Positions 5,567 through 16,684 of a DNA stretch of 16,781 nucleotides are shown here, piece by piece. The notes below the pieces were generated by a model. It was not told the origin of the DNA, did not search any database, and saw only the letters and a program-made list of their open reading frames with translations. This stretch comes from an uncultured Eubacteriales bacterium. GTDB taxonomy: Bacteria; Bacillota; Clostridia; Christensenellales; Borkfalkiaceae. Each line of letters begins with the position of its first letter. Positions within the stretch are counted from its first letter, which is position 1. The stretch is from the NCBI GenBank assembly GCA_900549005.1, contig URMT01000030.1, positions 1-16,781 on the forward strand. The letters are read 5' to 3'. The translations under genes and the position numbers were made by a program.

Positions 5567-8380
5567 TCACAACACCTTTTTGAGGAACTGGCCCGTGTAA
5601 CTTTCGGGATGAGCCGCAACATCTTCGGGAGAACCGCAGGCAATAAGAGTTCCTCCCTTGTCGCCGCCCTCGGGGCCGAGGTCGATTATCCAGTCGGAAG
5701 TTTTTATGACGTCGAGGTTGTGTTCTATTACCAGCACCGTGTTGCCGCCCTCGCGCAGGCGCGCAAGAATTTTTATAAGCTTGTCGACGTCGTAACTGTG
5801 CAGTCCCGTAGTGGGCTCGTCGAGAATGTAGAAGGTTTTGCCCGTACTCCTCTTTGAAAGCTCGGTGGCAAGTTTTACCCTCTGCGCCTCGCCGCCGGAA
5901 AGCGTGGTCGCGCTCTGCCCGAGTTTTATATAGCCGAGGCCCACATCAACCAGCGTTGACAGCTTGTTATAGATAGAATTTATAGGCTTGAAGAATTCGG
6001 CGGCGTCTTCCACCGTCATCTCCAATACGTCGGATATAGACTTACCCTTATACTTTACTTCGAGCGTTTCACGGTTATAGCGCTTGCCACCGCACACTTC
6101 GCACGGCACGTAGATATCGGGCAGAAAGTGCATCTCTATCTGAATTATGCCGCCGCCTTCGCAGTGTTCGCACCTGCCGCCCGCTATATTGAAAGAAAAT
6201 CTGCCGCTCTTATAGCCGCGCTCCTTGGCGTCAGGCGTGGCGGCGAACAAATCGCGTATCATCGTGAACACGCCCGTATAAGTTGCGGGGTTGGAGCGGG
6301 GCGTTCTGCCTATTGGCTGCTGGTCGATTGCTATCACCTTGTCGAAGTGTTCCAATCCCTCAATTTTAACGAACTTGCCCTGCGGCTGGCGCGCGCCGTT
6401 TAAAGTGTTTGCAAGGTAGGGGTAAATAATTTCGTTCACAAGGCTGGACTTGCCCGAACCCGAAACACCCGTCACCGCCGTTATTAGCCCTGCTGGAATC
6501 TGTACGTCGATACCTTTCAGGTTGTTCTGTCTTGCGCCGTGCACGGTGAGGTATCTGCCGTCGGGCTTTTTTCTTACGGCGGGCACTTCAATCTTCCTTC
6601 TGCCCGAAAGGTAATCGCCCGTAATTGAGTTCGGACAGTTCATTATGTCCTGCGGAGTGCCGCAGGCTACTACTTCGCCGCCGTGCACGCCCGCCTTGGG
6701 GCCTATATCCACGATATAGTCGGCCTCGCGCATAGTGTCCTCGTCGTGCTCGACGACGATAAGCGTGTTGCCCAAATCGCGCAAGCCTTTAAGCGAGGCG
6801 AGAAGTTTTTCGTTGTCGCGCTGGTGAAGACCTATCGAAGGTTCGTCGAGGATATAGAGTACTCCCGTAAGCGCGCTGCCTATCTGCGTAGCTAATCTTA
6901 TTCGCTGGCTTTCGCCGCCTGAAAGCGTTGCCGCGCTGCGCGACAGCGTAAGATACCCCAGCCCCACGTTTTTAAGGAAACTTATGCGGTTATCTATCTC
7001 TTTTATGATGCTGTCGGCAATCATATGCTCGGTGGGCGTGAAGAAAGAAAAGTCTGTAAACGACGCCAAATCGTCCACGGCCATATCGCACACCTGCGCA
7101 ATATTTTTGCCGCCTACCGTCACCGCAAGCGCCTCTTTTTTAAGCCTCTTGCCGTGGCAGACAGGGCAGTCGGTCGTGCGCATATAGCGTTCAATGTCCA
7201 TCTTTACGCTGTCTGACGATGTCTGGTTATAGCGGCGCTGCAAGTTGTTTGCAAAGCCCTCCCACGAAGTTTTATAGCTGCCCGAAAAGCGGTATGCGTT
7301 GTACGCAAGCTCTATCTGCTCGCCGCCGTTGCCGTACATAAGCATATCGTATACGCCTTCCGGCAGGTCTTTTACGGGCACGTCGAGCGAAAAATTGTAA
7401 TGTTTTGCAAGCGAGCTTATATACATCTGCGTGACAGACGAACTGTCGAGATTCCAGCCGCTTATTTTAATTGCCCCCTCGCGCAAGGTTTTGGTCTTGT
7501 CGGGGCAAATCATATCGGGGTCAACCACCTGTTTAAAGCCCAGGCCCGAACATTCGGGGCAGGCGCCCCACGGGGTGTTGAACGAAAACAGGCGGGGCTC
7601 TATTTCCTCTATCGATATTCCGCAGTCGGGGCAGGTATAGTTGGAGGAATACAGGTCTTCCTTGTCGCCACTGTCTATTATTACCAGACCGCCGCCCAGC
7701 TTCAAAGCGGCTTCAAGGCTGTCGGTAAGCCTCTTTAAAATACCCTCTTTGATGACCAGCCTGTCCAGAATCACCGATATGTTGTGGCGGATATTCTTCT
7801 CTAAATGAATTTCTTCCTGCAAGTCGTATACGGCGCCGTCTATCTTCACCCTGCCGTAGCCGCTCTTTTTGAACCCCGCAAGCTCCTTGGCAAATTCGCC
7901 CTTCTTGCCGCGCGCGATGGGCGCTTCAACCATTATTTTACTGCCCTGCGGCATCGCCATAACCCTGTCGGCGATTTCGTCCACAGACTGCTTGCGTATC
8001 TCCCTGCCGCAGTTGGGGCAATGAGGTATGCCCACGCGCGCAAACAATAAACGGAAATAGTCGTAAATTTCCGTCACCGTGCCCACGGTCGAACGCGGGT
8101 TGTGCGATGTGGTTTTCTGGTCTATGGAAATTGCGGGCGAAAGGCCGTCTATAAGCTCCACGTCGGGTTTTTCCATTTGGCCAAGGAATTGGCGGGCGTA
8201 TGAAGAAAGACTCTCTATATACCTTCTCTGTCCCTCGGCGAAAATCGTATCGAACGCGAGCGTGGATTTGCCGCTGCCCGAAAGACCCGTAAACACTGTG
8301 AGAGTGTTGCGGGGGATATGCACATCTATATTTTTTAAATTGTTTTCTTTTGCGCCCTTTACAAAAATTTCTTCTTTCAT
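5567..8380 (-). CDS. uvrA: Excinuclease ABC subunit A
   Basis: Full-length UvrA (937 residues), the damage-sensing ATPase of nucleotide excision repair, which acts as a dimer with UvrB in the cytoplasm. Two ABC ATPase modules are visible: Walker A GLSGSGKST at 32-40 and GVSGSGKSS at 638-646, signatures LSGGE at 486-490 and 827-831, and Walker B YILDEP at 509-514 and 851-856. Zinc-site cysteines are C250/C253/C274/C277 and C737/C740/C760/C763; CPNC (121-124) and CPVC (405-408) add further cysteine pairs. All catalytic motifs are intact. The start lies 70 bases after uvrB with a weak AGGG ribosome-binding site, as expected for the second gene of a uvrBA operon. It is therefore likely to share damage induction through the operator upstream of uvrB. 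Confidence 0.99.
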   Translation of the reverse strand: MKEEIFVKGAKENNLKNIDVHIPRNTLTVFTGLSGSGKSTLAFDTIFAEGQRRYIESLSSYARQFLGQMEKPDVELIDGLSPAISIDQKTTSHNPRSTVGTVTEIYDYFRLLFARVGIPHCPNCGREIRKQSVDEIADRVMAMPQGSKIMVEAPIARGKKGEFAKELAGFKKSGYGRVKIDGAVYDLQEEIHLEKNIRHNISVILDRLVIKEGILKRLTDSLEAALKLGGGLVIIDSGDKEDLYSSNYTCPDCGISIEEIEPRLFSFNTPWGACPECSGLGFKQVVDPDMICPDKTKTLREGAIKISGWNLDSSSVTQMYISSLAKHYNFSLDVPVKDLPEGVYDMLMYGNGGEQIELAYNAYRFSGSYKTSWEGFANNLQRRYNQTSSDSVKMDIERYMRTTDCPVCHGKRLKKEALAVTVGGKNIAQVCDMAVDDLASFTDFSFFTPTEHMIADSIIKEIDNRISFLKNVGLGYLTLSRSAATLSGGESQRIRLATQIGSALTGVLYILDEPSIGLHQRDNEKLLASLKGLRDLGNTLIVVEHDEDTMREADYIVDIGPKAGVHGGEVVACGTPQDIMNCPNSITGDYLSGRRKIEVPAVRKKPDGRYLTVHGARQNNLKGIDVQIPAGLITAVTGVSGSGKSSLVNEIIYPYLANTLNGARQPQGKFVKIEGLEHFDKVIAIDQQPIGRTPRSNPATYTGVFTMIRDLFAATPDAKERGYKSGRFSFNIAGGRCEHCEGGGIIQIEMHFLPDIYVPCEVCGGKRYNRETLEVKYKGKSISDVLEMTVEDAAEFFKPINSIYNKLSTLVDVGLGYIKLGQSATTLSGGEAQRVKLATELSKRSTGKTFYILDEPTTGLHSYDVDKLIKILARLREGGNTVLVIEHNLDVIKTSDWIIDLGPEGGDKGGTLIACGSPEDVAAHPESYTGQFLKKVL

Positions 8381-8450: not shown

Positions 8451-10430
8451 TCAGCTCTTCGGCACCGATTTGCCCGCCGTACGCATACGCTTTTTCAATC
8501 CGTTTATGGTATCGCGTATCTCTATCGCGCGTTCGAAGTCGAGCTGGGCGGAAGCCACCGCCATCAATGCTTTGAGCTTTTCGATTTCGGCGGGAATGTC
8601 GGCGGCCTTTATATCGTCGCCCACCTTCTTTTTGCCCGTTATGCCTATCGTGCTCTTTACTTCCTTTATTATCGTCTTAGGCGTAATTCCGTGCGCCTTG
8701 TTGTATTCGTCCTGAATTTTGCGGCGGCGCTGAGTTTCATCTATGGCGCGCTTCATACTGCCCGTAATTGTATCGGCATACATAATTACGCGGCCCTCGG
8801 CGTTTCTCGCCGCCCTGCCTATCGTCTGAACGAGCGCCGTTTCGCTCCTCAAAAAGCCCTCTTTATCAGCGTCGAGTATGGCAACCAGCTTTACTTCGGG
8901 CAGGTCAAGCCCCTCGCGCAGCAGGTTAATGCCGCACAGCACGTCAAATTCGCCGCTCCTTAAACCGTTGATTATGTCGATGCGTTCGAGCGCGTCTATG
9001 TCGCTGTGCATATACTTTACTTTTAAGGAATGTTCTTTGAGATAGTCGGTAAGACTCTCGGCCATACGCTTGGTCATAGTGGTGACGAGCACCCTGCCCT
9101 GCGAGGCAATCACCTTGTTGATTTCGCCCAGAAGGTCGTCAATCTGTCCCTTGGTGGGACGCACCTCCACCTCGGGGTCCAAAAGCCCCGTGGGACGGAT
9201 GAGCTGTTCCACCGTGTTGCCCGACTGTTCGAGTTCGTAAGGCGCGGGCGTGGCCGAAACGCAGATAAGCTGCGGTATGCGCGCGTCGAACTCCTCGAAG
9301 GTGAGCGGGCGGTTATCGTAAGCAGATTTTAAACGGAAGCCGTAGTTTACCAGATTTTCCTTCCTGCTCCTGTCGCCGTGATACATTGCGCGTATCTGCG
9401 GTATGGTCATATGGCTCTCGTCTATGAACACGAGAAATTCGCCCGCGGGGAAATAGTCTAAAAGCGTGAACGAGGGTTCGCCGGGGCTGCGCCCGTCGAA
9501 GTATCGGCTGTAATTTTCCACGCCGCTGCAATAGCCTATCTCGCGTATCATCTCCATATCGAAGGTGGTGCGCTGTTCGAGGCGCTCTGCCTCCAAGGGC
9601 TTGCCCGCGTCGCGGAAGGCCCTGACTTCGTCCTTCATATCGTGCTCTATCATCGCAAGCGCCCTGCCAAGCTTGTCGCTTCCCACGGCATAGTGCGTGG
9701 CCGGGAATATGCACACGTGTTTGAGTTCGGATATTATATTGCCCGTGAGCGCGTCCTCTTCGCATATTCTGTCTATCTCGTCGCCGAAAAATTCCACGCG
9801 GATGGCTACTTCCGAATTGCTCGCAGGGAAAATTTCCACAATGTCACCCCTGACGCGGAAGGTTGCGCGGTGGAAATCCATATCGTTGCGTGCGTACTGA
9901 ATTTCTACCAGGCGGCGAAGAAGGTCGTCGCGGCTGAGCTCCTGCCCGGGGCGAAGGGATACAGACAGTCTGAAATATTCTTCGGGCGCGCCCAGACCGT
10001 ATATGCACGAAACCGAAGCCACCACGATTACGTCCCTTCTCTCTCCCAGCGAGGCTGTTGCAGAGTTGCGCAATTTATCTATTTCGTCGTTCAGGCTCAT
10101 ATCCTTTTCGATGTAAGTATCGGTTGACGGAATGTAACTTTCGGGCTGGTAATAGTCGTAGTAAGAAACGAAGTATTCCACCCTGTTTTCGGGGAAGAAC
10201 TCGCGGAACTCGTTGCAAAGCTGTGCGGCAAGCGTCTTGTTGTGCGCAATAACCAGCGTGGGACGGTTGACGTTCTTTATTATGTTAGCCATAGTGAACG
10301 TCTTGCCGCTGCCCGTAACGCCCACGAGCACCTGCGTGCGTATGCCGTCGAAAACGCCCTCGGTTAGCTCTTTTATGGCCTCCGGCTGGTCGCCCGTAGG
10401 CTGAAATTTTGAATATAACTTAAACTCCAT
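8451..10430 (-). CDS. uvrB: Excinuclease ABC subunit B
   Basis: Full-length UvrB (659 residues), the helicase-like subunit that is loaded at DNA damage by UvrA and recruits UvrC for incision. It shows Walker A GVTGSGKT at 37-44, the DNA-clamping beta-hairpin [20 protein letters not shown] at 91-110, the Walker B box DESH at 337-340, helicase motif [11 protein letters not shown] at 535-543, and the C-terminal UVR domain (about 614-648) that contacts UvrC. It heads the operon with uvrA. Two promoters precede it: a proximal one with a very short leader, and a distal one overlapped by a LexA-like operator. Confidence 0.99.
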
Positions 10431-10512: not shown

Positions 10513-10526
10513 TAAACATTTGTTTG
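10513..10526 (-). promoter_or_regulatory. LexA-like operator at uvrB
   Basis: The minus strand reads CAAACAAATGTTTA, which matches 13 of 14 positions of the two operators at 13118 and 13163 and is palindromic except for the last base. It lies just downstream of the -10 box of the distal promoter and covers the predicted transcription start near 10524, the position expected for a repressor site. uvrB is a classical SOS gene, which supports reading this as the LexA box of the organism. Confidence 0.82.
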
Positions 10527-12882: not shown

Positions 12883-12912
12883 ACTATATTTATTTTTAAC
12901 CTCGTCTTGCAA
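12883..12912 (-). promoter_or_regulatory. Candidate proximal promoter of the response regulator
   Basis: TTGCAA (12912-12907), an 18-bp spacer and TATAGT (12888-12883) on the minus strand. The predicted start near 12876 leaves a leader of about 48 bases. The -10 is imperfect, and the better-matched upstream promoter may be the main one. Confidence 0.45.
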
Positions 12913-12934
12913 GCGTTAAAACATATTTATCACA

Positions 12935-12962
12935 ATTATATTAGATTTAATTTACATATCAA
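12935..12962 (-). promoter_or_regulatory. Candidate distal promoter of the response regulator
   Basis: TTGATA (12962-12957), a 16-bp spacer and TATAAT (12940-12935) on the minus strand, with a leader of about 100 bases. Two 11-base direct repeats starting TGAAAT on the plus strand (12963-12973 and 12974-12984) abut the -35 box, spaced as OmpR/PhoB-type regulators usually bind. Confidence 0.55.
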
Positions 12963-13117
12963 TGAAATATAAGTGAAATTTGTGCATATGTACAAAAAGT
13001 TCACCGCGCAAAGATATTGCGGCCGCGCAGTCGCCGTCGCATACAGTACGTACAACCGCGGCCTATCCTCCCCCGCCCGCTGCCGTAAAAACCGGCAAAA
13101 ATTTTTTCTTTTAATAT

Positions 13118-13131
13118 CAAACAAATGTTTG
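13118..13131 (+). promoter_or_regulatory. LexA-like operator O1 of the radical-SAM operon
   Basis: CAAACAAATGTTTG, a perfect palindrome of 6-bp arms around AA. Its last three bases form the first three of the -35 box TTGACA, so a bound repressor would block polymerase. It is identical to O2, 45 bp downstream. Confidence 0.88.
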
Positions 13132-13157
13132 ACAAACGGTTTTGCGGGTGCTATAAT
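13129..13157 (+). promoter_or_regulatory. Strong consensus promoter of the radical-SAM operon
   Basis: TTGACA (13129-13134), a 17-bp spacer and TATAAT (13152-13157): a complete SigA/sigma-70 consensus. Such a strong promoter held between two identical palindromes is the arrangement of a tightly repressed, strongly inducible gene. Transcription should start near 13164, inside O2. Confidence 0.93.
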
Positions 13158-13162
13158 ACATT

Positions 13163-13176
13163 CAAACAAATGTTTG
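13163..13176 (+). promoter_or_regulatory. LexA-like operator O2 of the radical-SAM operon
   Basis: A second exact copy of CAAACAAATGTTTG, starting 6 bases after the -10 box and covering the predicted transcription start. O1 and O2 are 45 bp apart centre to centre, a little over four helical turns, so dimers at both sites would lie on similar faces of the helix. Confidence 0.88.
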
Positions 13177-13182
13177 CAAGGC

Positions 13183-13239
13183 GTGCGGCTGTTATTTCGG
13201 GTTTATGCCGCACTGCCCGCGCAGGCATTTGCAAGCGGG
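13183..13239 (+). promoter_or_regulatory. Structured leader with Shine-Dalgarno-masking hairpin
   Basis: Two tandem inverted repeats lie in the leader of the radical-SAM mRNA. GTGCGGC (13183-13189) pairs with GCCGCAC (13207-13213). CCCGC (13216-13220) pairs with GCGGG (13235-13239), possibly extended by GCA/TGC inside. The second hairpin contains the only Shine-Dalgarno-like sequence (GCGGGA, 13235-13240) before the ATG at 13248. It could limit translation. The base pairing is visible; the regulatory role is inferred. Confidence 0.45.
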
Positions 13240-13247
13240 ATACACAT

Positions 13248-14507
13248 ATGCTCAATGCCGATACTTTGCAAATTTTAACAGAAAGCGCCAAGTACGATGT
13301 GTCGTGCTCCTCTTCGGGTTCAAAACGGGCGAACACGAAGGGCGGGCTCGGAAATGCTTCCGTCGGGGGAATATGCCACTCCTTTACTCCCGACGGGAGA
13401 TGTATCTCTCTCCTTAAAATTCTTATGAGCAACGAGTGCGCATACGACTGCGAGTACTGCCCCAACCGCCGCTCTGCCGACGTGAAGAGGGCGCGCATTA
13501 CCCCCGACGAGATATGCGAACTTACGATAAACTTTTACAAGCGAAACTACATCGAGGGGCTGTTTTTATCGTCGGCGGTGTTCGATACGCCCAACCGCAC
13601 TATGGAACTGCTCGTCGAGACGGTGGTGAAGCTGAGAAAACAGTATAACTTCAACGGATATATACACCTCAAAGGCATACCGCACGCAGACGGCGCGCTC
13701 GCGCTGAAAGCCGCAAAATATGCCGACAGAATGAGCTATAACATAGAGTTGCCCTCAGAAAAGTCGCTTAAACTGCTCGCGCCGCAAAAGACCAAAGACA
13801 GCCTTATAACGCCGATGAAAAAGTTGCAGACGGCGATAGTGTGCGACAGGGAAAACAAGGTTAAAAAGGGTATGTTTCTGCCCGCGGGGCAGACCACACA
13901 GATGATTGTGGGCGCCTCGCCCGAAACCGACGGGCACATACTGCGGCTCACCGAATACCTTTACAGGCATATGGACTTGAAGAGGGTATACTACTCATCC
14001 TACATTCCCGTGGTGAAGAGCAATCTGCTCCCCGCCGCGCCCGCGGGACTTCTGCGCGAACACAGGCTTTACCAGGCCGACTGGCTGATACGTTTTTACG
14101 GGTTCGACGTAGACGAAATATGCGGCGAGGGCGAAAACCTGAGCCCCGACTACGACCCAAAATGTGCCTGGGCGCTAAGAAATATGCACCTCTTCCCCGT
14201 GGAAATAAACAGGGCGCCGCTCGAAATGTTGCTGCGCGTGCCCGGAATAGGCGCGAAGAGCGCATATAAAATTATACAGGCGCGAAAGTTTGCCGCGCTC
14301 GACTTCGATAATCTTGCAAAAATGCGCATAGTATTAAAGAGGGCAAAGCACTTTATTACCTGCAAGGGCAGATTTTTCGGGTTGGAGTACGCAGCGGCAA
14401 AGACCGCATTGATGATTGACGAAAAGTGCCGCACGGAGCAGAGCGAACAGCTTTCGCTGTTCTCCACTCCCTCCGATACGCTGAGCGCCCTCACGGGAGA
14501 GCTATGA
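13248..14507 (+). CDS. Putative DNA modification/repair radical SAM protein (TIGR03916 type) with helix-hairpin-helix
   Basis: A 419-residue protein of the family named for its link to uracil-DNA glycosylase-like proteins (TIGR03916, COG4277). The opening ILTESAKYDVSCSSSGSKR is characteristic. The radical-SAM cluster cysteines are C64, C68 and C71 (CAYDCEYC), so it should bind a 4Fe-4S cluster and SAM. A C-terminal helix-hairpin-helix (about 320-365; VPGIGAKSAYKI) predicts DNA binding. The reaction is unknown. The ATG at 13248 is chosen because it matches the family start and lies about 84 bases after the predicted transcription start; the frame open further upstream would begin inside the promoter. 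The stop overlaps the next gene's start as ATGA, so the two are co-translated. Two LexA-like operators indicate damage-inducible expression. Confidence 0.95.
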   Translation: MLNADTLQILTESAKYDVSCSSSGSKRANTKGGLGNASVGGICHSFTPDGRCISLLKILMSNECAYDCEYCPNRRSADVKRARITPDEICELTINFYKRNYIEGLFLSSAVFDTPNRTMELLVETVVKLRKQYNFNGYIHLKGIPHADGALALKAAKYADRMSYNIELPSEKSLKLLAPQKTKDSLITPMKKLQTAIVCDRENKVKKGMFLPAGQTTQMIVGASPETDGHILRLTEYLYRHMDLKRVYYSSYIPVVKSNLLPAAPAGLLREHRLYQADWLIRFYGFDVDEICGEGENLSPDYDPKCAWALRNMHLFPVEINRAPLEMLLRVPGIGAKSAYKIIQARKFAALDFDNLAKMRIVLKRAKHFITCKGRFFGLEYAAAKTALMIDEKCRTEQSEQLSLFSTPSDTLSALTGEL

Positions 14508-15247
14508 AAGTTTTTATAACCGACGGCACAGCGGCGGGATTTTACACCGCCGTATTCCTCTCTTACAGGGAAAAGGATGCCGTAATCACCTCGCAAGAAA
14601 ACAGGCAGCTGAGCTTTGACACCGAAGTGATAAACGTTGAAACGGACAGAGAAAAGGCAGAGCGCGTGCGCGCCAGAATAGACGGCACCGACAGGTACGC
14701 AGCAGGAGACATAGACCTGGCGCTGAGGAGCTGCGATTCGCTCAAAGAGAATGTCTGCGCCGAATATATAAAATTGCTGATAAAAAGCGGGCGGCCGGTG
14801 CGAAAGATGCTATCGCACCCTACGGTGATAGAGATTACAGAAATAATACAGCGCGTGACGGGCGAACTGCATAAAATGAAGGGCTTTCTGCGCTTTATGG
14901 AGACGGAGAGCGGCGCGCTTTACGCCCCCTATTCTCCCGACAACGACATAACCGACCTGATTGCGCCGCACTTCAAGGCGAGGCTGGGCGGGCACAAGTT
15001 TGCCATACACGACGTAAAACGCAAAAAGGCAGCGCTGTGCGACGGCACAGACTGGTTTATGGCCGAAGTCGGCGAGGCGGAAGTTTATCTGTCCGAATAC
15101 GAGCGCTCGTTTGAAGCGCTGTGGAAAAAGTATTACACCAGCGTAAACGTGAAAGAGCGCCCGCACGAAAAGCAGATGAAGGGCTATATGCCCGTGCGCT
15201 ACTGGAAATTCCTGCCCGAAAAGAACGGGCAGAGCGACGCGGAATGA
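14504..15247 (+). CDS. TIGR03915/DUF4130 family probable DNA metabolism protein
   Basis: A 247-residue protein that in known genomes accompanies the TIGR03916 radical-SAM protein. The N-terminal part (MKVFITDGTAAGFYTAVF) is followed by the conserved C-terminal DUF4130 region: MKGFLRFME near 125, YAPYSPDNDITDLIAPHF, FAIHDVKR, then WKKYYTSVNVKERPH and MPVRYWKFLPE. In some organisms this module is fused to a uracil-DNA glycosylase-like domain (TIGR03914); no such domain is present here, so a glycosylase, if needed, must be encoded elsewhere. The ATG at 14504 overlaps the radical-SAM stop by 4 bp, with GGGAGAG upstream as ribosome-binding site. The biochemical function is unknown; a role in DNA repair is inferred from partner, family and operators. 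Confidence 0.93.
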   Translation: MKVFITDGTAAGFYTAVFLSYREKDAVITSQENRQLSFDTEVINVETDREKAERVRARIDGTDRYAAGDIDLALRSCDSLKENVCAEYIKLLIKSGRPVRKMLSHPTVIEITEIIQRVTGELHKMKGFLRFMETESGALYAPYSPDNDITDLIAPHFKARLGGHKFAIHDVKRKKAALCDGTDWFMAEVGEAEVYLSEYERSFEALWKKYYTSVNVKERPHEKQMKGYMPVRYWKFLPEKNGQSDAE

Positions 15248-15278
15248 CAATTGCTTACAATATTACTCCCTTTAAAGG

Positions 15279-15325
15279 CCGCGTGGTCGGCGACATAAAG
15301 TCGCCGACCACGCGGTTCATTTTAT
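15279..15325 (+). terminator. Terminator between the radical-SAM operon and the Mrp gene
   Basis: A perfect 16-bp stem, CCGCGTGGTCGGCGAC (15279-15294) with its complement (15300-15315), around a 5-base loop. It is followed on the plus strand by TTCATTTTAT. It lies 31 bases after the DUF4130 stop. Because the genes converge here, the same hairpin may also stop minus-strand transcripts of the Mrp gene, though no T-tract follows on that side. Confidence 0.85.
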
Positions 15326-15368
15326 AAAAATATAAGTTCTTTCAAAACCTATTTAAAGCACGCGCCGC

Positions 15369-16417: not shown

Positions 16418-16684
16418 GCTGTGCTAAGTGGGGAGTTAGCGGTGCCCTGTACCTGCAATCCGCTACAGCAGGACTGAATATCTCTCTCGACGCAGCAGAT
16501 GGAAGGACTGCGCTCTGCAAGGGGCGTTGATCGCAAGGTCTTATGCAACCGGAAGCTGCGAACCGTGTCAGGATAGGGATATAGCAGCACTAAACAGTCC
16601 GAAGGTGTGCCATAAGGTAGCTTTGCGGGAGTTACCTGCATTGTTTCACGCTTCGGTTTGTTGCGGCAAAAGAGATTGCACAGT
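16418..16684 (+). ncRNA. ffs: Signal recognition particle RNA, large Gram-positive type
   Basis: About 267 bases, the usual size of the Bacillus/Clostridium SRP RNA. It scaffolds Ffh for co-translational targeting of membrane and secreted proteins. The 5' Alu domain is recognisable from GGGGAGTTAGCGGTGCCCTG and the following ACCTGCAATCCGC through GCAGGACTGAA. The Ffh-binding domain IV lies at 16567-16588: GTCAGG, a short AU stem, a GGGA tetraloop (16576-16579) and AGCAGC. CTGTGC at 16419-16424 pairs with GCACAG at 16678-16683, closing the molecule. The closing stem is followed by seven T residues (16684-16690), which serve as terminator. Confidence 0.95.

What the first reader, a model, noticed from the sequence alone, without database searches (positions are those of the whole stretch)
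13118..15247. A radical-SAM/DUF4130 repair cassette that looks like a tightly repressed SOS operon
A TIGR03916-type radical-SAM protein with a helix-hairpin-helix and its TIGR03915 partner form an operon overlapping by 4 bp. Their function is unknown in the family descriptions I know. Here a complete consensus promoter (TTGACA-17-TATAAT) is bracketed by two exact copies of CAAACAAATGTTTG, one overlapping the -35 box and one the transcription start. The same element, with one mismatch, sits at uvrB, a classical SOS gene, in this window. This gives the pair a concrete prediction: off in normal growth, strongly induced by DNA damage, like the most tightly held SOS genes. No uracil-DNA glycosylase domain is fused here. 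Sequence and positions are seen; LexA as the repressor is inference.
Basis: partly seen in the sequence, partly recalled or inferred. Interest (0 to 1): 0.88.

Follow-up and report, generated by a model that had tools for sequence, protein, structure and literature searches.

The report
SOS-controlled DNA-repair pair with RNA hairpin
A gut bacterium appears to keep two little-understood DNA-repair genes under the DNA-damage (SOS) switch, and their message seems to start with an RNA hairpin that relatives preserve even though its letters change, which hints at a second layer of control.

Summary
TIGR03916 radical-SAM (13248-14507) and TIGR03915/DUF4130 (14504-15247) genes overlap by 4 bp; a consensus promoter is bracketed by two exact CAAACAAATGTTTG boxes, and uvrB has a one-mismatch copy. 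LexA control is well supported: a box lies upstream of 66 of 69 related radical-SAM genes, at lexA in 19 of 21 relatives, and at 26 of the 30 best-scoring TIGR03916 loci from 299 phylum genomes. recA mostly lacks it. LexA control is not new: it was predicted for this operon in Clostridium acetobutylicum (2013) and for a uracil-glycosylase-linked form in Bacteroidetes.

Additional, from sequence only: (1) right after the second box lies a stem-loop whose stem differs between species while its arms co-vary (34 non-redundant leaders: -410 against -254, SD 14, with swapped arms) and whose loop keeps CGGGU; 48 of 59 members of one clade have it. Rfam scans of the window and three relatives did not match it; no paper search targeted it. 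(2) DUF4130 models like a divergent DHH (RecJ/Cdc45) fold, by structure only. (3) The radical-SAM enzyme has three extra conserved cysteines.

LexA binding, induction, hairpin function and the lesion are unproven.

The parts
13118..13131 (+). upstream LexA-type box CAAACAAATGTTTG, overlapping the -35
   Evidence: exact match; two boxes 40-60 bp apart in 16 of 69 related loci
13129..13157 (+). sigma-A-type promoter TTGACA-17-TATAAT
   Evidence: read directly; similar -35/-10 sequences next to the box in many relatives, judged by eye
13163..13176 (+). downstream LexA-type box CAAACAAATGTTTG, starting at about the inferred transcription start
   Evidence: exact match; at least one box with at most 2 mismatches in 66 of 69 related loci
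13167..13231 (+). predicted folded 5' leader: box-2 RNA (13167-13177) pairs with 13221-13231 and encloses the hairpin
   Evidence: minimum free energy fold of 13163-13252, -32.9 kcal/mol, z -1.94, 9 of 200 shuffles at least as stable
13183..13213 (+). leader stem-loop, arms GTGCGGC/GCCGCAC, loop with UUCGGGU (CGGGU at 13198-13202)
   Evidence: arm-swap tests over relatives; core-sequence control; coordinates
13248..14507 (+). radical-SAM gene, TIGR03916, 419 aa; CX3CX2C at C64/C68/C71, extra conserved C20, C43, C52; helix-hairpin-helix-like stretch towards the C-terminus
14504..15247 (+). TIGR03915/DUF4130 gene, 247 aa, stand-alone, model resembles DHH proteins
15277..15317 (+). stable hairpin after the operon (possible terminator)
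   Evidence: fold of 15240-15345, -41.9 kcal/mol for the stretch; no terminator scan was run
10513..10526 (-). LexA-type box of uvrB (one mismatch)
8451..10430 (-). uvrB
5567..8380 (-). uvrA

Best explanation
This is an SOS operon. LexA sits on two palindromes, one over the -35 and one over the start point, and blocks a consensus promoter; RecA-driven LexA cleavage after DNA damage releases it (inferred). The mRNA then begins with the RNA copy of the second operator followed by a stem-loop whose CGGGU loop is conserved; I propose that it is a second, post-transcriptional control or stabilising element, perhaps bound by a trans factor. The two products, coded with a 4-bp overlap, probably act together on damaged DNA: a helix-hairpin-helix radical-SAM enzyme, possibly with an auxiliary Fe-S cluster, does radical chemistry on a lesion, and DUF4130, a DHH-like protein probably without classical DHH catalysis, holds or processes the strand. 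Shown: the sequence elements, their conservation and the co-variation of the arms. Inferred: LexA binding, induction, transcription start, the second layer, and the chemistry.
For: Box with at most 2 mismatches within 300 bp of the radical-SAM gene in 66 of 69 related loci, at lexA in 19 of 21, upstream of uvrB in 18 of 34, at a Y-family-polymerase-like gene in G001 and G009. Of 299 phylum-drawn genomes 65 have TIGR03916 over the cut-off; in the 30 loci returned (the best-scoring), 19 have CRAACRNNYGTTYG with at most 1 mismatch within 200 bp and 26 with at most 2, against shuffle means of 0.04 and 1.58. Hairpin: 43 distinct leaders, own pairing -737.4 against -434 (SD 19) for swapped arms, lowest of 10,000 permutations -506; 34 non-redundant leaders, box excluded, -410.2 against -253.9 (SD 13.9), 0 of 10,000 as low, while the next 24 nt show no such fit. 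Strict hairpins with CGGGT: 25 in leaders and 47 elsewhere; six unrelated cores 0 in leaders and 25-67 elsewhere. Box plus CGGGT: 21 hits in 24 genomes, 16 of them radical-SAM leaders. Tree: 48 of 59 rows of one clade, 0 of 10 outside. DUF4130 follows in 97 of 100 loci. DUF4130 model pLDDT 86.5, leading VIA rows DHH-type. Extra cysteines invariant in 51 aligned proteins and in 5 of 6 proteins from three phyla.
Against: recA has no nearby box in nearly all relatives, so the regulon is not the textbook one. No binding or induction data. 11 of the 59 clade members lack the hairpin, so it is dispensable. A count of pairs enclosing the loop does not beat shuffles in the window (79 of 100 reach it) and is weak overall (mean z 0.83 over 46); the window leader as a whole folds only at z -1.94; L001, L022, L035, L052 and L069 fit their own arm poorly in the swap test (ranks 17, 12, 28, 9 and 18 of 42). 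Five of 21 box-plus-CGGGT hits lie elsewhere. Profile comparison gives no support for DUF4130 as a DHH protein.
Confidence: 0.75

Rival explanations
1. A repressor other than LexA binds the palindrome.
For: Binding was not tested; the window motif (CAAAC..GTTTG) differs from the Bacillus subtilis box 5'-GAACN4GTTC-3' quoted in PMC4234289 (passage); recA mostly lacks it.
Against: lexA, uvrB and a Y-family-polymerase-like gene carry it; in other genomes of the phylum the same gene often carries GAAC-type boxes.
Confidence: 0.05
2. The hairpin is only a generic 5'-end stabiliser; the loop has no specific partner.
For: It lies close to the inferred 5' end, and stem sequence and length vary freely.
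Against: A generic stabiliser does not explain the fixed CGGGU: six unrelated cores never occur in such leader hairpins, and 16 of 21 box-plus-CGGGT hits in 24 genomes are this leader.
Confidence: 0.3
3. The radical-SAM protein is a SplB-like photolyase and DUF4130 a partner that modifies thymine.
For: [quoted passage not shown]
Against: No spore photoproduct lyase model is among the NCBIfam matches at E 0.001 and none is in the 50 fold matches shown, which are led by HydE (Foldseek) and lipoyl synthase (VIA); three extra conserved cysteines suggest a second cluster.
Confidence: 0.2
4. The DHH likeness of DUF4130 is only a common arrangement, not kinship.
Against: The leading VIA rows and most of the leading named viral rows are DHH-superfamily proteins spanning most of the model.
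Confidence: 0.3

Closest known systems
CAC3343-CAC3344 of Clostridium acetobutylicum, predicted LexA operon (PMC3828012, passages)
   Different: one species; the passages shown mention no double box, leader hairpin or fold; I did not check that CAC3344 is DUF4130
COG1573-COG4277 uracil-DNA-glycosylase operon in Bacteroidetes, and as cited there in Verrucomicrobia and Alphaproteobacteria (PMC8565304, passages)
   Same: predicted LexA-controlled two-gene repair operon; that COG4277 is the TIGR03916 family is recalled
   Different: it includes a uracil-DNA glycosylase; on two alphaproteobacterial plasmids the partner is annotated UdgX family, 478 and 484 aa. Here DUF4130 stands alone, and 0 of 40 genomes searched have a TIGR03914 match over its cut-off
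tisB mRNA of Escherichia coli (PMC7708055, abstract and outline read; LexA control recalled)
   Same: DNA-damage-induced mRNA whose structured 5' leader adds a second layer of control
   Different: pseudoknot and standby site of a toxin mRNA; no sequence relation was looked for; here no cis partner of the loop was found
RecJ / Cdc45 / NrnA (DHH superfamily)
   Same: overall arrangement of the predicted DUF4130 model
   Different: no profile similarity, no conserved DHH motif

Membership tests
LexA (SOS) regulon of Bacillota | operator of the lineage's LexA type in the promoter | tested here: met
   two exact boxes; a box in 66 of 69 related loci
LexA (SOS) regulon of Bacillota | the same operator at lexA itself | tested here: met
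   19 of 21 relatives; not testable in the window's own genome
LexA (SOS) regulon of Bacillota | the same operator at recA (usual, not defining for a target gene) | tested here: not met
   26 of 29 without a site within 350 bp; only G028 has one near the gene. In the 12-kb stretches of G001 and G009 the only intergenic site with at most 2 mismatches upstream of recA is at L179:2164, several genes away
LexA (SOS) regulon of Bacillota | LexA binding and damage induction | not testable with these tools
   needs the bench
TIGR03916 (rSAM_link_UDG) | score over the curated cut-off | tested here: met
   583.1 bits, cut-off 343.5
TIGR03915 / DUF4130 | score over the curated cut-off | tested here: met
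   199.7 bits, cut-off 112.25; PF13566 148.7, cut-off 27
UDG/UdgX-linked form (COG1573-COG4277) | uracil-DNA glycosylase domain fused to the pair | tested here: not met
   no such domain matched in the window proteins; the 95 complete DUF4130 frames among 100 loci are 236-277 aa; no over-cut-off TIGR03914 in 40 genomes, weaker matches in 13
SplB spore photoproduct lyase | match to an SPL family model or fold | tested here: inconclusive
   no SPL model among NCBIfam matches at E 0.001; not in the 50 fold matches shown
Lipoyl-synthase-like radical SAM with N-terminal auxiliary cluster | three cysteines before the CX3CX2C motif that bind a second cluster | tested here: inconclusive
   C20, C43, C52 conserved, but spacing is unlike LipA's (recalled) and the model is poor there; best VIA matches LipA 16.2 and HydE 15.9, a tie
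DHH phosphoesterases (RecJ, NrnA, Cdc45) | fold | tested here: inconclusive
DHH phosphoesterases (RecJ, NrnA, Cdc45) | DHH motif and profile similarity | tested here: not met
   not among conserved columns; hhalign 0.1%; no DHH or DHHA1 among Pfam matches of 55 members at E up to 10
Rfam RNA families | the leader matches a family | tested here: not met
   in window 12900-13400 only a far-sub-threshold match on the other strand; none at the leaders of L028, L031, L042; other leaders were not scanned

The most novel reading that the evidence does not exclude
The stem-loop with the conserved CGGGU loop is a new class of cis-acting bacterial RNA, built in part from the RNA copy of the LexA operator, that gives a LexA-controlled repair operon a second, post-transcriptional lock read by a specific trans factor (protein or RNA, perhaps the operon's own product); and DUF4130 is a degenerate RecJ/Cdc45-like factor that works with a two-cluster radical-SAM DNA enzyme.
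Probability: 0.35. Interest if true: 0.8.

Novelty: new variant of a known kind. Interest (0 to 1): 0.6.

Why it matters
The TIGR03916/DUF4130 pair is widespread and, as far as I recall, has no known reaction. The data make it a frequent SOS operon in the phylum, without the uracil glycosylase that other phyla attach, so the core activity should lie in the radical-SAM enzyme and DUF4130 themselves. The leader hairpin offers a directly testable case of an SOS mRNA with a possible second control layer, and the DHH-like model gives a structural idea for a domain of unknown function.

Tried and rejected
Whole-genome scan of the window's own genome: none held, so relatives were used. Rfam: no match at the window leader or at three relatives' leaders. 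Counting pairs that enclose the loop against shuffles was uninformative (mean z 0.83; 6 of 46 leaders at 5 of 100 or fewer); I replaced it by the arm-swap test and report both. A first scan of lexA and recA loci did not orient minus-strand loci and was redone. Cis pseudoknot of the CGGGU loop: no ACCCG in the 200 nt downstream in 46 of 46 leaders; I do not claim active avoidance, because GACCC and CACCG are also nearly absent from that stretch (0 and 1 of 46). A covariance model was not built: few compact seed hairpins and little information; the genome-wide statement rests on a pattern search, which also missed known leaders (for example that of G009). Profile proof of the DHH idea failed. 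For solved-structure sequences, DUF4130 has one match at E 0.52 and the radical-SAM protein none at E 0.01. Spore photoproduct lyase and UDG folds do not appear in the 50 rows shown, which excludes nothing. Paper searches with 0 hits: TIGR03916; LexA + SOS regulon + Christensenell; UdgX + radical SAM. With hits. No search was aimed at the hairpin, so I cannot say that it is not in print.

Papers: PMC3765255, PMC8565304, PMC9380542, PMC4234289 and PMC3828012 were seen as passages; PMC7708055 as abstract and outline; all others as listings. The Verrucomicrobia paper (PMC4951493) is not held and is known only through PMC8565304.
Full report
OBSERVATION. The window holds a two-gene operon: TIGR03916 radical-SAM gene 13248-14507 (419 aa) and TIGR03915/DUF4130 gene 14504-15247 (247 aa), overlapping by 4 bp. 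Upstream, TTGACA (13129-13134), a 17-bp spacer and TATAAT (13152-13157) form a consensus promoter; two exact CAAACAAATGTTTG boxes lie at 13118-13131 and 13163-13176, 45 bp apart, and a one-mismatch copy lies before uvrB. About 0.0009 exact matches are expected in the window.

IS IT LexA? The window's own genome is not held. A scan of species genomes gave 70 relatives, MAGs labelled Clostridia or similar, six of them named Candidatus Coproplasma. A box with at most 2 mismatches to CRAACANNTGTTYG lies within 300 bp upstream in 66 of 69 loci that have upstream sequence; 16 of 69 have two boxes 40-60 bp apart, among them all 11 relatives in the window's 12-row clade (L001-L010, L069), with spacing 45 or 47. 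Of 30 genomes searched, 21 have a lexA match, and 19 of those carry the box within 350 bp upstream, by eye mostly over the -35 region. For uvrB, 18 of 34 have a site with at most 2 mismatches within 300 bp; a few of these may be chance. Listing every site with at most one mismatch in G001 and G009 (18 and 20 places) shows intergenic sites at lexA, at a Y-family-polymerase-like gene (Pfam IMS exactly at its cut-off for a 60-residue piece) and at the radical-SAM gene in both, at uvrB in G009, at an AAA ATPase in G001, at a small unknown gene in both, and in a repeated element; many others lie inside genes. Against: 26 of 29 recA loci have no site with at most 2 mismatches within 350 bp upstream; the exceptions are G028 (at -53), G014 (-347) and G023 (-261). 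In G001 and G009 recA lies behind genes that look, by eye, like rimO, pgsA and cinA. So lexA and uvrB support LexA, while recA is mostly outside this lineage's visible regulon.

HOW GENERAL? Of 299 genomes drawn from the phylum, 65 have TIGR03916 over the cut-off. Of the 30 loci returned, the best-scoring, 5 have CRAACRNNYGTTYG exactly, 19 with at most one mismatch and 26 with at most two within 200 bp upstream; shuffled upstream regions give means of 0.02, 0.04 and 1.58. This pattern is looser than the window's box and was chosen after seeing the relatives. SOS control of this gene therefore looks frequent in the phylum. DUF4130 lies next to it in 97 of 100 loci; the exceptions are L065 (contig ends), L191 and L201; the 95 complete frames are 236-277 aa, never the size of a UDG fusion. 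0 of 40 genomes have a TIGR03914 match over the cut-off; 13 of 40 have weaker UDG-like matches, one of them (G028) among the 20 genomes taken from the first 70 loci. On two alphaproteobacterial plasmids the partner is annotated 'UdgX family uracil-DNA binding protein', 478 and 484 aa.

PRIOR ART. PMC3828012 (2013; [quoted passage not shown] PMC8565304 (passages) predicts LexA control of a COG1573-COG4277 operon in Bacteroidetes and cites Verrucomicrobia and Alphaproteobacteria for the glycosylase system; that COG4277 equals TIGR03916 is recalled. PMC3765255 (passages) links DUF4130 to SplB-like enzymes and uracil glycosylases. SOS control as such is thus not new.

THE LEADER RNA. After the box the leader forms a stem-loop. 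In 46 of 70 sequences examined (window plus 69 loci; 69 of 70 have a box at up to 3 mismatches) a script found [AT]CGGG[TC] within 40 nt after a box. Examples of stems: L005 TGTGCGGTGCA/TGCGCCGCGCA, L014 TACGGAAA/TTTCCGTG, L031 TTTGCGTAAA/TTTACGCGGG. Arms fit their own partner far better than those of other loci: 43 distinct leaders, -737.4 against -434 (SD 19), lowest of 10,000 permutations -506; 31 of 43 in the top 5%. With 5' arms at most 70% identical and the box excluded, 34 leaders give -410.2 against -253.9 (SD 13.9), 0 of 10,000 as low; the next 24 nt downstream fit slightly worse than permuted ones (-187.1 against -212.8). A strict hairpin with CGGGT occurs 25 times in leaders (24 loci) and 47 times elsewhere on both strands of 1.1 Mb; ACGGG, a shifted reading of the same loop in part, 10 times in leaders; six other cores 0 times in leaders though 25-67 times elsewhere. 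Box plus CGGGT within 24 nt occurs 21 times, in 18 of 24 genomes, with no reversed-pattern hits; 16 of the 21 are the radical-SAM leaders, two are copies of the G009 repeat element, three are elsewhere; the pattern misses some known leaders (matched). In the window and several close relatives the RNA of the second box is also predicted to pair with a stretch nearer the start codon. On a tree of 69 proteins the hairpin is in 48 of 59 rows of one clade and 0 of 10 outside; one gain and several losses is the simplest reading (the 59-row fork has support 92/90; two labels were set by eye). A simple count of enclosing pairs against shuffles was weak, and L001, L022, L035, L052 and L069 fit poorly.

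MECHANISM. Off in normal growth through two LexA boxes; on after damage; message opened by a conserved stem-loop whose role (stability, translation, or binding of a partner) is unknown; products acting together on DNA by radical chemistry. Only the sequence facts are shown.

VERDICT. A known kind of SOS operon with two further aspects that I did not find described: a co-varying leader hairpin and a fold hypothesis for DUF4130.

recA count corrected (26 of 29, three exceptions), radical-SAM share of box-plus-CGGGT hits corrected (16 of 21), DHH fold set to inconclusive, claims of novelty of the hairpin limited to the Rfam scans made.

Noticed in passing
L150:2909, L152:2567 (G001); L161:2069, L162:656, L168:1980 (G009): A repeated element: LexA-type box, consensus-like promoter and a hairpin GAGTACAGGC...GCCTGTRCTC (variants between copies), two copies seen in G001 and three in G009; may be an SOS-driven mobile or RNA element.
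   Followed up: partly
L158:1998 and L169:2047: A small gene (123 and 130 aa; no Pfam match for the first 60 residues of the first) begins 32 and 17 bp from the centre of a LexA-type box in the two genomes: a candidate unknown SOS protein.
   Followed up: partly
L098-L126 (recA loci); L160, L179: 26 of 29 recA loci lack a LexA-type box within 350 bp; in G001 and G009 recA sits behind genes that look by eye like rimO, pgsA and cinA.
   Followed up: partly
leaders of, for example, L013, L018, L020, L021, L022, L027, L029, L033, L034, L042, L044, L045, L048, L051, L053: A second, stable hairpin (TTCCGCCG...CGGCGGAA) with a CTCC-containing loop before the start codon, in leaders without an obvious Shine-Dalgarno sequence, judged by eye.
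   Followed up: no
window 13236-13243 and L001-L007, L009, L010, L016, L069: CGGGATAC (CGGGATGC in L016) lies just before the start codon in 12 sequences, with CATTTG before it in 7 of the 12, which can pair with the RNA of the LexA box.
   Followed up: partly
L091, L092: A second kind of LexA-like gene, the only one found in G029 and an additional one in G003, with its own inverted GAAC/GTTC repeat upstream.
   Followed up: no
window 16419-16683: Bacterial large SRP RNA, 164.5 bits; also in L028 and L031.
   Followed up: yes
phage-collection hits H41-H50: TIGR03916-like proteins (44-98% of the query covered) occur in 10 phage-collection records, 8 of them unannotated faecal contigs.
   Followed up: no
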